Of a DNA stretch of 64,000 nucleotides, positions 981-6,483 are shown piece after piece (position 1 is the first letter of the stretch; each line of letters opens with the position of its first letter). Position numbers and translations under genes: made by a program. The notes under the pieces are model-generated. The model was not told where the DNA came from. It made no database searches and saw only the letters and a program-made list of their open reading frames with translations. The DNA is from Candidatus Bathyarchaeota archaeon (lineage in GTDB: Archaea; Thermoproteota; Bathyarchaeia; Bathyarchaeales; Bathycorpusculaceae): the NCBI GenBank assembly GCA_026014725.1, contig JAOZHV010000059.1:248001-312000 (forward strand), written 5' to 3'.

Positions 981-2026
981 TTGTTGGTCACCTTTTCGAA
1001 TACTGCGATTTCCCGCGTTAGCGTCCTGTGAACGTAGGCGAAGTGTGATTCCACATGCCGAAAGCCCAAGCGGGCGCCGATACGGGATATGTTTAATGTT
1101 TTAGGGGAAGCTATACAAATCCGTTGCCCCGCGCCGAGGAGTTGCCAAGATGAAGCCAGAACTTCTGTGACTAGTTGTTTGGTTGTTGATTTGAGGGTGC
1201 TTGCTGAGCGTCCGTAAGGGGGGTCAGTAACCACCACGTCTACTCGTGTGAATGGGAGTTTGCGTGCGTCAGCTAAAATCAGTCCCTCGGCTGTGATGTG
1301 GAAGTATGCGAGGTTTTTTTTAGCGCCCAACACCATCCGTTTCTGTGCATCAACGCCGATTGCGCGGCAACCGATGTATGTGGCTTCGATGAGGGAGCTG
1401 CCTGTGCCGCAGAACGGGTCAAGCACCAAGCTTTCTGCTTTTGCGTGTGCGAGGTTTACCATGCAGCGTGTGAGTTTTGAGGGCATGGCTGATGGGTGGA
1501 AGAAGGGTTTTTTTCGTGGTCTGCGTTCGCTGAAGGTTTTGGTTTGGATTTCGGTTAGTTTTAAGCCGAAGATGAGTTTTTCGTTTGTGATGATGCCGAT
1601 GAAGGTTTTGTCTGGGTTTTTGAGGTTAACTTTTGTGCCTTGGGTGCGTTGGAGGATTATTTTGCCTAGTTTGCCTTCGAGGGTCATGGTGTTTATGTTT
1701 TGGTCGGCGTAGTTTTTTATGCGGTTTATGCGTACTGAAAAGGTTTCGCCTGTTTTGAGGACGGCGGAGTAGTCTGTTTGGTTTGCGGTTTTTGTGATGT
1801 CGGTTTCTGTTGCTTGTGAGATGAATAGTTCTTGTGCGCAGACGCGTGTGAATGCGGCTCTTATCTGCACGGGCTCCACGCTTGAGAGGTCGGCTTCTAA
1901 GCGCAGGGTTTGGTCTAGCACTTCAACGTTTGAGTAGGCGTAGCCTTCGGCTTCAAGGATTGCTTTTACTTCTGCGGCTGGCAGGGTTTCGTTTTCGCCT
2001 GAGAGCAAAAAGAAGAGTTTAGGCAC
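977..2026 (-). CDS. tRNA (guanine(10)-N2)-dimethyltransferase (Trm-G10/aTrm11)
   Basis: SAM-dependent enzyme that methylates N2 of G10 in tRNA. An N-terminal THUMP-type RNA-binding region is followed by a Rossmann methyltransferase: motif I in LDPFCGTGSSLIEA and the amino-methylating motif IV TDPPYGRS. I chose the GTG at 2026 (349 residues, start VPKLFFLLSGENE), which overlaps the stop codon of prs. An ATG at 2068 would add 14 residues and overlap prs by 50 bases, and those residues do not look like family sequence. It lies between prs and rnz on the same strand, so two tRNA maturation enzymes are co-transcribed with PRPP synthase. Confidence 0.9.
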   Translation of the reverse strand: MPKLFFLLSGENETLPAAEVKAILEAEGYAYSNVEVLDQTLRLEADLSSVEPVQIRAAFTRVCAQELFISQATETDITKTANQTDYSAVLKTGETFSVRINRIKNYADQNINTMTLEGKLGKIILQRTQGTKVNLKNPDKTFIGIITNEKLIFGLKLTEIQTKTFSERRPRKKPFFHPSAMPSKLTRCMVNLAHAKAESLVLDPFCGTGSSLIEATYIGCRAIGVDAQKRMVLGAKKNLAYFHITAEGLILADARKLPFTRVDVVVTDPPYGRSASTLKSTTKQLVTEVLASSWQLLGAGQRICIASPKTLNISRIGARLGFRHVESHFAYVHRTLTREIAVFEKVTNK

Positions 2027-2909
2027 TCGGATTTGCGCCTTTGAGTTGTTTGCTAATGAGCGGTGCAAGCGAGACTTTGCTGTAGGGTCCTGGCACGCTG
2101 TCTGTGCCCACGATTTCTTCTACGCCAGCGTCTAGGATGCGTTTTGCTGCGTCTCCGATTAGCAGTGGGTGGACGCATGCGGTGAAGATGTGTTTTGCGC
2201 CTTGTTCTTTTAGGATTTTTGCTGCGCCAACGATTGTGCCGCCTGTGCTGATGATGTCGTCGAGGATTATGACGGTTTGGTCTTTTACGTCTAAGCCTTT
2301 GCCTGTTTGTGTGGTTTGTCCAGTGTAGCGGTCGCGTTGCTTGTCTAGGTGTCCTGCGTTGCCGCCTAAAACCTGCTGGGCTTCGTAGGCGATGTACATT
2401 GCGCCTTTGTCGGGTGAGAGTGCGTAGGCTTTCTTGTAGCCCTTATCAACAAAATACTGTGCCAAAAGTGGTATGGCGCTTGTTGTTTTGGCTGGGAAGG
2501 GGAATTGTTTGAGGGCTTTTTCTGAGTGAATGTTAACGGTGAGTAACTGGTCGATTCCTGAGGCTTTCAGCATTCGCGCGACGGTTTGGACGCTTATGCC
2601 TTCGCCTGACAAAAACATCTTGTCTTGCCGCGCATACGCTAGATAAGGTGTGACTGCTGTGATTTTGGTTGCGCCAGCGCGTTTTGCCGCGTCAGCCATG
2701 AACGCTAACTGCATTAGTCTGCCGTCCTGCATGGGTGGACAGGTGGTTTGCACTATGGCTACTTCTTCGCCTTGGACGTTGCCTTCTAAGCGAACGTAGG
2801 ATTCGCCGTCTGGAAAAATTTTGGCTGAAACTGGCACGTTTTGGAAGCCTGTTAGCTCTGAAACTTTCTCGGCTAGTTCTTTGGACGCTGGACCAGAGAC
2901 AATCTTCAT
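2019..2909 (-). CDS. prs: Ribose-phosphate pyrophosphokinase (PRPP synthetase)
   Basis: 296 residues. Makes PRPP from ribose 5-phosphate and ATP for nucleotide, histidine and NAD synthesis. Visible family motifs are FPDGESYVR near the N-terminus, the catalytic flexible-loop region, ALSPDKGA, and the PRPP-binding loop VIILDDIISTGGTIV near residue 215. Length fits the short archaeal class. First gene of the minus-strand operon with trmG10 and rnz. PRPP is the co-substrate of pyrE elsewhere in the window (8793-9419). The ATG at 2909 has a T-rich promoter region upstream. Confidence 0.95.
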   Translation of the reverse strand: MKIVSGPASKELAEKVSELTGFQNVPVSAKIFPDGESYVRLEGNVQGEEVAIVQTTCPPMQDGRLMQLAFMADAAKRAGATKITAVTPYLAYARQDKMFLSGEGISVQTVARMLKASGIDQLLTVNIHSEKALKQFPFPAKTTSAIPLLAQYFVDKGYKKAYALSPDKGAMYIAYEAQQVLGGNAGHLDKQRDRYTGQTTQTGKGLDVKDQTVIILDDIISTGGTIVGAAKILKEQGAKHIFTACVHPLLIGDAAKRILDAGVEEIVGTDSVPGPYSKVSLAPLISKQLKGANPSA

Positions 2910-3152: not shown

Positions 3153-4187
3153 ATGATGTCGGCTATAACAGCCTTTGACTCAAAGGATTTCAAGAGGTCA
3201 AATAAAGTTGGCGACCTCAAGTTCTTCTCACCTTTAGGTTGCGGAGTAAAGGTAACTAAGATCAAAGAGTTCCAAGACCTTTACATCGAAAAAATGACCA
3301 GAATTTTAACGGAGTTTGGCGTTTCCCCAGTATGTGGTTGTTTAGCATCTTCTGAATTTTTTCCCTCTGCTGGCTTCTCAAAAACCTACAAAATGGCGGA
3401 TAACTTACTTAAAGAAATACAAGATTTAGTAGATTCAGTTTTTATCTCATACGTTATTCTTCCTTCTGCCACAATACCTAAGGTTGAAGTGGGTGGGTAT
3501 AGAAGCCCTAAAAGAGAAATAGCGACATTTGATTTTCTCAGAACCCTTTCAACCTATTTTTCCTACATTACAGCATGGACTTATCTTAATCAACGTAAAA
3601 GAGAAAACGAGCAAATATTTGTGGATGGATTTAGAGGTAAAGTAACCTACGCTTGGGAGGACTTGTTAAGTAAAACCTCTCCAGTTGTATATCCCCACGG
3701 TGATGAATGTAATGTTTTTATTTCAACCGCTGATATGATTGCTTCTCTAACAGATAAAAAATTATATGATAACTATTTACACTTGAAACCAGAAGATATT
3801 ACACGTATTTGGGAAGAATACGCTTTTGATGTTGAGGTTCGTTTTCTTGACTCAAACACTCTTTCACAAATAAGATGGATAAGCGATGAATTGATCAACG
3901 TTTCAAATCAACACGCTAAACCAACAATTTTTCTCAAGGCTGACGGGTACACGACCGATGATATAAAAAAGCTTTCGATATATCCAGACGCAACATTATT
4001 GGCTAGAAAGCTGAATGGTTGTTTACAAGGATTTAACAAGAAAATAGACACGGCAAAAATAAGAGATGGTGATGTATTCATTTATGCAGGAAAGGAAGCA
4101 GAAGAAAACGCCATGACACTTAAAGACATGTATAAACTACAGATAATGCCATTCAAGGAATTAAAAGAAAGAGTTAAACCACCTTAA
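3153..4187 (+). CDS. Hypothetical protein in AT-rich island
   Basis: 344 residues, not recognised. The best start is ATG 3153 (or ATG 3156), 4 to 7 bases after a GAGGG ribosome binding site at 3144-3148. A TTG at 3105 would extend it by 16 residues but lacks such a site. A TATA-like TTTATAT lies near 3099. The protein is soluble with no membrane segment. Recognisable stretches include FSPLGCGVKVTKIKEFQDLY near the N-terminus, a middle helical part, and FLKADGYTTDDIKKL later. It lies beside a transposase remnant and an Mrr-like nuclease, with base composition more AT-rich than the flanking housekeeping genes, so recent acquisition is likely. A defence or mobile-element role is only a guess from context. 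Confidence 0.7.
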   Translation: MMSAITAFDSKDFKRSNKVGDLKFFSPLGCGVKVTKIKEFQDLYIEKMTRILTEFGVSPVCGCLASSEFFPSAGFSKTYKMADNLLKEIQDLVDSVFISYVILPSATIPKVEVGGYRSPKREIATFDFLRTLSTYFSYITAWTYLNQRKRENEQIFVDGFRGKVTYAWEDLLSKTSPVVYPHGDECNVFISTADMIASLTDKKLYDNYLHLKPEDITRIWEEYAFDVEVRFLDSNTLSQIRWISDELINVSNQHAKPTIFLKADGYTTDDIKKLSIYPDATLLARKLNGCLQGFNKKIDTAKIRDGDVFIYAGKEAEENAMTLKDMYKLQIMPFKELKERVKPP

Positions 4188-4324
4188 CACTTTTCATTAG
4201 TAGTTGACGATGGCACATGATGCCGATGTGGGATCATACGCAAATATCCTCTTACCAAGATTAGATATATAAAACTTGTTCTGAAACACTATGTACTAGC
4301 AAGTTGTAGTACACATCTATACTG

Positions 4325-4480
4325 AATTTTGTCGAGCATTTTGTATGAGTTATCTATCTTTCCTTTTATATTCCACATGCCTCTGAAGGTGTTTTGCCGT
4401 CTATTGCTTCATGTGGTCTTATGTAGTTTGGTACAATTGATAGCCTTGAAAGATAACTATATACCAGAATTAACGCTAAA
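4325..4480 (-). pseudogene. Decayed C-terminal tail of a DDE transposase
   Basis: On the minus strand the stretch ending at the stop codon 4366-4368 reads PNYIRPHEAIDGKTPSEACG, the typical end of an integrase-core transposase (family pattern YNxxRPHxALxGKTPxEAAGI). Past a one-base shift the following bases read EYKRKDR, stop, LIQNARQN, matching the usual extreme C-terminus in which a Trp codon has become a stop. No catalytic DDE part remains, and upstream similarity fades after about 4480. The rest of the gap 4188-4592 holds only this remnant, a short inverted repeat TGTACTA/TAGTACA near 4292-4313 that might be an element end, and the promoter of the next gene. Confidence 0.7.
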
Positions 4481-4592
4481 TTGAACCGATTAGACCATAC
4501 AAGTCACAAAGAAAAGCCTGAATGGAACAAGCGTTCATAAATTTAAAATAGATGCTATTTCGAAAATAGAATAAAGACTTAGAGGTCTTCCA

Positions 4593-5909
4593 GTGATTGA
4601 AGGCACGACAGTTCTCTTAGATAAGATGTCAGGATTTGATTTTGAAGAGCTTGTTGCAGACATACTAAGCAAATTAGGTTATGGGCATGTCGAAAAAATA
4701 CTATACACACAAGATGGCGGTAGAGACATACTGATTCATTCTTCGAGTGGGTTAATTGTTATAGAATGCAAACACCAACCAAAAAGTAGTATCGGTCGTC
4801 CAGTGGTTCAAAAGTTACATTCGGCAGTTGTCACTTCGAAAGCTACTAAAGGCATTCTTGTTACTACAGGGCGCTTTACAAAAGAAGCATTGGAGTATGC
4901 CTCAAAACTTGCAGGTTCCACAACACCGATTGATATGGTAGACCGTCCTATTCTCATCGATATGGCATCTCGCGCTAATGTTATCTTAGTTAGCGGTAAA
5001 CAAAAATTGAGCGTTTGGTCTTATGCTCTTCCATCAAAAGAGGAAACAATTAATGCCATATCATCGCGAGTCGCTTCGTTTTCCTTTAGCCATCCTCGGC
5101 GTCCTTCTGAGTTATTAAATAATTTGAGCAGAATTGTTTCGTATCGACCCGTCTATTCCATAACTTACAGTATAAATAGTGTCTTTGAAACATCAATCGG
5201 AATTATCCATCGAGAAAACACTTCGAAAGCTCGAATTTTGCTTGATGGAAACACTGGGCAATCATATGCCGATAATGTTAGTGCCTTCTTGGAAACAGAA
5301 CAGCAGTATGCATTTAATCAGCCACATGAAGATTTCAAAGGGAATTTACCTACATTCAAAATCGATGGTTCAACAATGCAAAGAAGCGCTAAAAAATTAA
5401 TCATAGAAAAACATTCCAGAAATGTTTCGTATTATGGTCGTAACAATCGGAGATATGTTAAAAAATGCGTTCCTAGTGAAAGGGACATTTATATTAGTGA
5501 CATACGCCAGCTTTACCTTCCTTTAACTAGGTTAGATTTCAAATTAGGCTCAACAAGTTATTATTCTGAAGGAGCACAAGCGCAATCAGGGCGTCTTTTG
5601 TCATTAGCTGATAATCTCACAGCGTGTAGAATCTGTAACAAGAGGATAACAGAAGGCGCTATTATTTGTGATACTTGTGGCAAAGTGACACATTCTGGGG
5701 GTTTTTTGATAAGATCAATTCATGGGTTTAGATGTAAAAGATGCGGTCGAACCACTTGCAGGGAACACGGATTCTGGAAACGAAGATATTTAATTTTTAA
5801 GGAAATGCTATGCCCGAGTTGCTTTGAAGCATCTGGACATGAGAGCACTACATTTAGACGATTTGATCCGTTCAATGCGTTATCTCTATGGGAAAAATTG
5901 TTTGGTTAA
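4593..5909 (+). CDS. Mrr-like restriction endonuclease with C-terminal zinc fingers
   Basis: 438 residues. The first ~110 residues match the Mrr-type PD-(D/E)XK nuclease fold: FDFEELVADILSKLGY, then DGGRDI (catalytic Asp) and IVIECKHQ (Glu-x-Lys pair). Such domains cleave modified or foreign DNA. The middle (about 150-340) is not recognised. The tail from about residue 345 carries paired CxxC knuckles (CRICNKR, CDTCGK, CKRCGR, CPSCF), suggesting one or two zinc ribbons for DNA or protein binding. GTG start at 4593, 6 bases after an AGAGGT site. It stands alone, with no methylase or specificity subunit nearby, next to a transposase remnant, so a type IV-like or solitary defence nuclease is inferred. 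Confidence 0.8.
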   Translation: MIEGTTVLLDKMSGFDFEELVADILSKLGYGHVEKILYTQDGGRDILIHSSSGLIVIECKHQPKSSIGRPVVQKLHSAVVTSKATKGILVTTGRFTKEALEYASKLAGSTTPIDMVDRPILIDMASRANVILVSGKQKLSVWSYALPSKEETINAISSRVASFSFSHPRRPSELLNNLSRIVSYRPVYSITYSINSVFETSIGIIHRENTSKARILLDGNTGQSYADNVSAFLETEQQYAFNQPHEDFKGNLPTFKIDGSTMQRSAKKLIIEKHSRNVSYYGRNNRRYVKKCVPSERDIYISDIRQLYLPLTRLDFKLGSTSYYSEGAQAQSGRLLSLADNLTACRICNKRITEGAIICDTCGKVTHSGGFLIRSIHGFRCKRCGRTTCREHGFWKRRYLIFKEMLCPSCFEASGHESTTFRRFDPFNALSLWEKLFG

Positions 5910-5964: not shown

Positions 5965-6483
5965 TTATGGGAATCTTAGTTGTCTTTCCCATTGGTTTTG
6001 CCAAGGAGTAACCGTTCTAGTAGTCTTATACTGTACCTGCCTAACTCCAAGCGCTAGCTCAGCAAACTCCCTTACAGTAGTGTAGCGGAAATCCCATGTT
6101 GGCGCACCATACCTCAACCCGCTGCACATGGTGTCGGCGTAGATGTAGAGTTTGTTTCCTCGATAATCGAAGGCGGCTTGGTTTGGTTCGCCGTATTTCG
6201 GCTCAGAGAGCACTTTAAACGGCCACAGCTTGCACGCTTCAGGCTTCATGCTTTGCAGTCCACAAAAATAGTTGCGCGACGTGTTGCACAGAAAAGCGCA
6301 GGAGCCGTCGGTTGCGCGTTTTATGTAGAAGCGGTCTAAGCCTGCCACGGTGGTGTCTAACCCGAAAGTCTTTGTGATGTGCAACCATTCGGGGAAGGCT
6401 AAGACTACGCTGTAGAGTTTGCAGCAGATGCCGCATGCTTTGCAGTGCCAGTCGGCGATGTTTTGCCATGGAACAAAGTGCAC
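5965..6483 (-). CDS. YkgJ-family cysteine cluster protein
   Basis: 172 residues. The N-terminal HCKACGICCKLY (CxxCxxCC) and later cysteines in FLCNTSRNYFCGL and PEACKLWPF match the YkgJ/UPF0153 (zinc- or iron-sulfur-binding CxxCxxCC) family, whose function is unknown. The family usually has eight conserved cysteines, and about that number is present. GTG start at 6483 with only a weak upstream site. It is transcribed away from the repeat R1 and is not part of an obvious operon. Confidence 0.8.
   Translation of the reverse strand: MHFVPWQNIADWHCKACGICCKLYSVVLAFPEWLHITKTFGLDTTVAGLDRFYIKRATDGSCAFLCNTSRNYFCGLQSMKPEACKLWPFKVLSEPKYGEPNQAAFDYRGNKLYIYADTMCSGLRYGAPTWDFRYTTVREFAELALGVRQVQYKTTRTVTPWQNQWERQLRFP

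What the first reader, a model, noticed from the sequence alone, without database searches (positions are those of the whole stretch)
3153..5909. AT-rich accessory island with orphan Mrr-like nuclease bearing C-terminal zinc fingers
The nuclease joins an Mrr PD-(D/E)XK domain (DGGRDI...IECKHQ), an unrecognised middle and four CxxC knuckles. It has no methylase partner and lies next to an unrecognised 344-residue protein and a transposase remnant. The neighbouring unknown could be a partner in an undescribed defence pair or merely hitchhiking.
Basis: inference. Interest (0 to 1): 0.6.

Follow-up and report, generated by a model that had tools for sequence, protein, structure and literature searches.

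The report
Solitary archaeal restriction-like nuclease; unrelated neighbour
An archaeon has acquired two unrelated accessory genes side by side: a stand-alone DNA-cutting enzyme of a type scattered over many archaeal chromosomes and plasmids, and a protein from an undescribed family that folds like RNase H; nothing indicates that they work as a pair.

Summary
The sequence observation holds. At 4593-5909 (+) lies a 438-residue Mrr_cat nuclease (Pfam 7.8e-29; D45, E58, K60) with an unannotated middle and four C-terminal CxxC knuckles. At 3153-4187 (+) lies a 344-residue protein with no Pfam, NCBIfam or PDB match. A decayed transposase tail lies between them. The genes are AT-rich (GC 0.36 and 0.39; window genes 0.454 +/- 0.040).
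The pair idea is not supported. The two families are never neighbours in any other locus examined. Only 2 of 33 other genomes with the nuclease hold even a remote relative of the neighbour, on another contig. A close relative's intergene keeps the transposase tail but neither gene, so they probably arrived separately on either side of an older scar.
The nuclease is one of many: at least 69 plasmids (mostly haloarchaeal) and about 10% of sampled genomes of one euryarchaeal phylum hold relatives, annotated 'restriction endonuclease'. Its middle-plus-zinc part recurs on a PLD-type nuclease and, more weakly, on HerA-like ATPases: probably a portable recognition module. The neighbour models confidently (pLDDT 86), resembles RNase H2 and keeps aspartates in RNase H-like places. 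Best reading: a solitary type IV-like restriction nuclease beside an independent RNase H-fold gene. Neither activity has been tested.

The parts
4593..5909 (+). ORF2: solitary Mrr_cat-type nuclease, 438 aa. Residues 9-124 are the PD-(D/E)XK domain (D45, E58, K60); about 140-340 an unannotated middle domain (FxTxxGxxH and VxYxGxNNxxYxKxCxP motifs); 345-410 the zinc-finger region with four CxxC knuckles.
   Evidence: Pfam Mrr_cat 7.8e-29. Full-length relatives on at least 69 plasmids and in 29 of 295 genomes of the sampled phylum. D45, K60 and the first four cysteines are invariant in the 38 sequences that cover them; E58 in 37.
3153..4187 (+). ORF1: 344-aa protein of an undescribed archaeal family with a predicted RNase H-like fold; conserved D9, D158 and D194 as candidate metal ligands.
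   Evidence: No Pfam, NCBIfam or PDB sequence match. AlphaFold2 mean pLDDT 85.9, pTM 0.87. Best Foldseek PDB hits are RNase H2 chains, probability 0.85-0.99, E from 5e-3. Conservation.
4366..4503 (-). Decayed C-terminal tail of a DDE transposase (..NYIRPHEAIDGKTPSEACGI*) between the two genes; its core, 4369-4432, is shared with the nearly empty site in G097.
   Evidence: blastn 80% over 65 nt, E 4e-8, to L109 2417-2480; reading frames shown.
2019..2909 (-). Left flank: ribose-phosphate pyrophosphokinase; found in 31 of 32 genomes of the genus.
   Evidence: Pfam; genus search.
5965..6483 (-). Right flank: CxxCxxCC-domain protein; next to the left-flank gene in G097.
   Evidence: Pfam PF03692 2e-5; genus search; junction alignment.

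Best explanation
ORF2 is a solitary, horizontally acquired restriction-like DNA endonuclease of archaea. Its N-terminal Mrr_cat domain cuts DNA (inferred from the intact D-E-K active site). Its C-terminal middle-plus-zinc cassette probably recognises the target DNA: a modification, a structure or a replication intermediate of foreign DNA (inferred). It has no partner methylase, so it would act like a type IV or structure-dependent enzyme (inferred). ORF1 is an independent accessory gene that encodes an RNase H-fold, probably metal-dependent, nuclease-like protein (fold predicted; activity inferred). The two were probably inserted separately on either side of an old transposase scar at a permissive intergenic site (shown as far as one nearly empty site allows).
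For: Intact catalytic residues across 38 relatives. Mrr_cat 7.8e-29 with no Mrr_N. Relatives stand alone with variable neighbours on haloarchaeal plasmids and on Methanocaldococcus fervens pMEFER01. The Mrr + middle + zinc architecture is patchy: 29 of 295 genomes in the phylum sampled around G580, and few in the window's own phylum. The cassette also recurs on a PLD/NgoFVII-like nuclease (middle-domain HMM 1.1e-14, PLDc_2 1.1e-18), as expected of a portable recognition module. Nearly empty site with the transposase tail in G097. No linkage of the two families. ORF1 model and fold matches. Published precedent that an Mrr-family type IV enzyme restricts methylated DNA in an archaeon, Haloferax volcanii HVO_0682 (PMC4389544, PMC6471742).
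Against: No activity has been shown for any member. A restriction role is inherited from the Mrr_cat name, and PMC3874153 warns that an Mrr nuclease domain does not by itself dictate modification dependence (LlaGI). Repair, replication or plasmid-maintenance roles also fit; the cassette's weaker resemblance to a HerA-type ATPase tail and its K-lost, syntenic form beside an Orc1/Cdc6-like gene in one lineage could point that way. No confident model of the middle domain was obtained (pLDDT 33 from a single sequence). Two separate insertions rest on one comparison genome, and the shared remnant is only 65 nt at 80%.
Confidence: 0.55

Rival explanations
1. ORF1 and ORF2 form an undescribed two-gene defence system: an RNase H-fold nuclease working with an Mrr nuclease.
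For: Same strand, adjacent, both AT-rich, both predicted nucleases, both absent from the nearly empty site.
Against: 405 bp apart with a transposase remnant between them; the families are never neighbours elsewhere; only 2 of 33 ORF2-positive genomes have even remote, unlinked ORF1-family matches; the remnant predates at least one insertion.
Confidence: 0.06
2. ORF2 is a DNA-repair or replication-associated nuclease that recognises branched or single-stranded DNA rather than a defence enzyme; the zinc cassette docks it on repair substrates, as on HerA-like ATPases.
For: Zinc-finger tail and a short pre-zinc motif shared with HerA/DUF87 ATPases; the M. fervens relative lies next to an MCM helicase gene; a K-lost form is syntenic with an Orc1/Cdc6-like gene in one lineage.
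Against: Patchy, plasmid-rich and multi-copy distribution (up to 3 per genome) is unlike a housekeeping repair enzyme; the HerA link is weak outside the cysteine-rich part (hhalign probability 30%).
Confidence: 0.25
3. ORF2 is a plasmid-derived selfish or competition nuclease (exclusion of other plasmids) left on the chromosome; ORF1 is likewise mobile-element baggage.
For: At least 69 plasmid relatives; a remote ORF1 homologue on Halobacterium plasmid pGSL19_54.9 near a parA gene; AT-rich island beside a transposase tail.
Against: Mobile-element origin does not exclude restriction; no plasmid genes remain in the island.
Confidence: 0.14

Closest known systems
Archaeal plasmid 'restriction endonuclease' family, e.g. 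Haloarcula marismortui pNG600 WP_011222458.1 and M. fervens pMEFER01 WP_012795058.1
   Same: Same order of domains over almost the whole length (30% identity over 429 columns, E 5e-49); same D-E-K active site, middle-domain motifs and first four cysteines; solitary.
   Different: The haloarchaeal forms replace the third and fourth CxxC pairs, mostly by acidic or other residues, and end in a hydrophobic tail. The function of these relatives is not known either.
Escherichia coli Mrr and Haloferax volcanii Mrr HVO_0682 (type IV)
   Same: Mrr_cat nuclease domain, no methylase partner.
   Different: E. coli Mrr has Mrr_N first and the nuclease second (PMC3874153); here the nuclease comes first, Mrr_N is absent, and an unknown middle plus zinc fingers follow. 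HVO_0682 could not be compared directly. Its homologues were reported absent from Natrialbaceae (PMC6471742), where the present family occurs (Natrinema, Natronorubrum, Halopiger plasmids).
MspJI family
   Same: Mrr-cat nuclease fused to a recognition domain, no partner.
   Different: MspJI has an SRA-like domain N-terminal to the nuclease (PMC3874153); no such domain is recognised here.
RNase H2 catalytic subunit and DUF3800 (for ORF1)
   Same: Predicted RNase H-like arrangement with aspartates in strand 1, a later strand and a helix.
   Different: No detectable sequence relation: no Pfam hit, and no hhalign match to DUF3800 members; TM-score to RNase H2 only 0.32-0.42; a separate C-terminal alpha/beta part from about residue 226.

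Membership tests
Mrr_cat (PF04471) nucleases | Profile match above the curated cut-off | tested here: met
   100.6 bits against a cut-off of 21
Mrr_cat (PF04471) nucleases | Intact D-(E/Q)xK active site | tested here: met
   D45, E58, K60; D and K invariant in the 38 relatives that cover them, E in 37
Type IV restriction enzyme Mrr | N-terminal Mrr_N winged-helix domain | tested here: not met
   No Mrr_N match at E up to 1; the nuclease domain starts at residue 9
Type IV restriction enzyme Mrr | Cleavage dependent on DNA modification | not testable with these tools
   Needs biochemistry or transformation assays
Type IV restriction enzyme Mrr | No adjacent cognate methylase | tested here: met
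   Neighbours are a PRPP synthase, a THUMP methyltransferase and a CxxCxxCC protein; solitary on most plasmids inspected. In Natrinema pellirubrum an annotated DNA methylase lies one transposase gene away.
Undescribed two-gene defence system | Recurrent linkage of the two genes | tested here: not met
   No adjacency outside the window; 2 of 33 genomes with unlinked remote matches
RNase H-like superfamily (ORF1) | Fold | tested here: met
   Confident model (pLDDT 85.9); the best PDB matches are RNase H2 chains, probability up to 0.99, but E only 5e-3 and TM 0.3-0.4, so moderate support
RNase H-like superfamily (ORF1) | Conserved acidic residues at the active-site positions | tested here: inconclusive
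   D9, D158 and D194 conserved in nearly all of 17 sequences; their distances in the model could not be measured
DUF3800 (PF12686) | Profile relation | tested here: not met
   No Pfam match; hhalign probability below 2%

The most novel reading that the evidence does not exclude
The middle-plus-zinc cassette is an undescribed archaeal DNA-targeting module that natural shuffling has attached to different nucleases (Mrr_cat, PLD/NgoFVII-like) and possibly to HerA-type ATPases, defining a family of archaeal defence or genome-processing enzymes. ORF1 founds a separate undescribed RNase H-fold nuclease family.
Probability: 0.3. Interest if true: 0.6.

Novelty: new variant of a known kind. Interest (0 to 1): 0.34.

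Why it matters
If the reading is right, a nuclease present on at least 69 mostly haloarchaeal plasmids and in about 10% of the sampled genomes of one euryarchaeal phylum is an uncharacterised solitary restriction enzyme with an undescribed targeting module. It would be testable at once in genetically tractable Halobacterium salinarum or Haloarcula, and it could help explain transformation barriers in archaea. The RNase H-fold family of ORF1 is an open, separately testable lead. For the scan, it shows that adjacency of two unknown genes in an island was not evidence of partnership.

Tried and rejected
DUF3800 as the family of ORF1: suggested by its motif layout, rejected at the sequence level (the first alignment contained wrong reading frames, which one search left out). 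A two-gene defence system: rejected on linkage. Terminal repeats or target-site duplications that would mark a single mobile element: only short, imperfect repeats of doubtful meaning. Virus origin: no relative in viral contigs or phage records for ORF1 or the cassette; one distant Mrr-only match on a viral contig. A scan with a zinc-ribbon relative returned matches at its N-terminal zinc ribbons only. The weak PADLOC match of ORF1 to PDC-M41A (13.8 bits) was not pursued. ORF2 modelled from one sequence was useless (pLDDT 33). Literature searches for this domain order found nothing describing it in the library held.

Full report
What is there. The window belongs to an archaeon; a genome of the same family is Candidatus Bathyarchaeota archaeon A05DMB-3. 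Between a PRPP synthase (2019-2909, minus) and a CxxCxxCC protein (5965-6483, minus) lie two plus-strand genes, ORF1 (3153-4187) and ORF2 (4593-5909), separated by 405 bp with a decayed transposase tail. Both are AT-rich relative to the window's genes.

ORF2. Residues 9-124 match Mrr_cat (7.8e-29); the rest has no Pfam family above cut-off. Full-length relatives were found in other genomes of the phylum (G371 37%, G327 33%, G127 25%), on at least 69 plasmids with 80% or more of the query covered, mostly haloarchaeal, and on M. fervens pMEFER01, and in 29 of 295 genomes of the phylum sampled around G580, up to three per genome. The annotated ones are called simply 'restriction endonuclease'. 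In 39 aligned proteins D45, K60 and the first four cysteines are invariant wherever covered, E58 with one exception, and the middle domain has its own signatures (F198xT200xxG203xxH206; V278xYxGxNxxxYxKxCxP294); the third and fourth CxxC pairs are lost in haloarchaea. The gene is solitary: neighbours differ from record to record.

The cassette. HMMs of the middle and zinc parts built separately also match Mrr-type proteins with extra N-terminal zinc ribbons (L122, L126, L139), a lineage with the lysine lost (ECW) in conserved synteny beside an Orc1/Cdc6-like gene, and a PLD/NgoFVII-like nuclease (L136; middle-domain E 1.1e-14). HerA/DUF87-type ATPases of about 950-1,000 residues share the zinc knuckles strongly but the middle only through a short pre-zinc motif (hhalign P 5e-4, probability 30%); I treat that link as tentative because cysteine-rich profiles inflate scores. 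Several of the E-values include sequences used to build the profile; the PLD protein was not among them.

ORF1. No family match. Relatives are patchy: 11 of 257 genomes of the class and 9 of 398 of the phylum; a species-wide scan found five, in Methanomethylicota (59%), an unclassified archaeon, Methanoperedens, Nitrosopumilaceae and Bathyarchaeota (43%). The closest is not from the window's own family, which suggests horizontal transfer. The six-sequence model is confident (pLDDT 85.9, pTM 0.87); five of the first six Foldseek PDB hits are RNase H2 chains (probability 0.85-0.99, best E 5e-3, TM 0.32-0.42). D9 sits in strand 1, D158 at the end of a strand and D194 in a helix, the order seen in RNase H (established knowledge of that fold), and they are conserved in nearly all 17 sequences; one paralogue (L060) has lost two of them. 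Distances were not measurable here. DUF3800 membership was tested and not met.

Are they a pair? The evidence is against it. No adjacency outside the window. Among 33 other ORF2-positive genomes two have remote ORF1-family matches, both on other contigs. In G097 the flanking genes lie about 320 bp apart, with the transposase tail between them and neither ORF: the left part of the intergene matches to window 2997, the tail equals 4369-4432, and the right flank resumes at 5965. So ORF1 lies left and ORF2 right of an older scar. The simplest history is two insertions; deletion of both in G097 is possible but needs two events as well. The 65-nt tail match is short, so this rests on modest evidence.

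Mechanism. Most likely ORF2 cuts foreign DNA by a PD-(D/E)XK reaction, with the cassette choosing the target. Shown: domain, active-site conservation, solitary accessory distribution. Inferred: cleavage, target and role. Precedent: deletion of the Mrr-family gene HVO_0682 in Haloferax volcanii raises transformation with methylated DNA (PMC4389544, PMC6471742). Caution: an Mrr domain does not by itself dictate modification dependence (PMC3874153).

Verdict. The nuclease is an architectural variant of a known nuclease kind with many annotated but uncharacterised relatives; the portable cassette and the RNase H-fold family of ORF1 are the parts worth following.

Noticed in passing
L161:3504-6338, L162:2361-5393: HerA/DUF87-type ATPases of about 950-1,000 aa with several zinc knuckles at the C-terminus, common in several families of the phylum, with a short motif shared with ORF2's cassette.
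   Followed up: partly
L167:6751-7917 (same gene as in L136), minus strand: A PLD/NgoFVII-like nuclease fused to the same middle-plus-zinc cassette as ORF2.
   Followed up: partly
L045-L049, L173, L174: A lineage of the class keeps a cassette protein whose nuclease motif lost its lysine (ECW) in conserved synteny beside an Orc1/Cdc6-like gene; it may have become a core, non-cutting protein.
   Followed up: partly
L171, L179: Two ORF1-family genes lie within a few genes of Mre11-HerA-NurA clusters; two of about 15 loci, so possibly chance.
   Followed up: no
L206:5935-7029: A remote ORF1 homologue (19.6% identity) on Halobacterium plasmid pGSL19_54.9 near parA and cas6.
   Followed up: no
L172:7923-8900, minus strand (same gene as in L060): A degenerate ORF1 paralogue with N158 and S194, apparently broken by a frameshift or early stop; the same genome (G515) has an intact copy.
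   Followed up: partly
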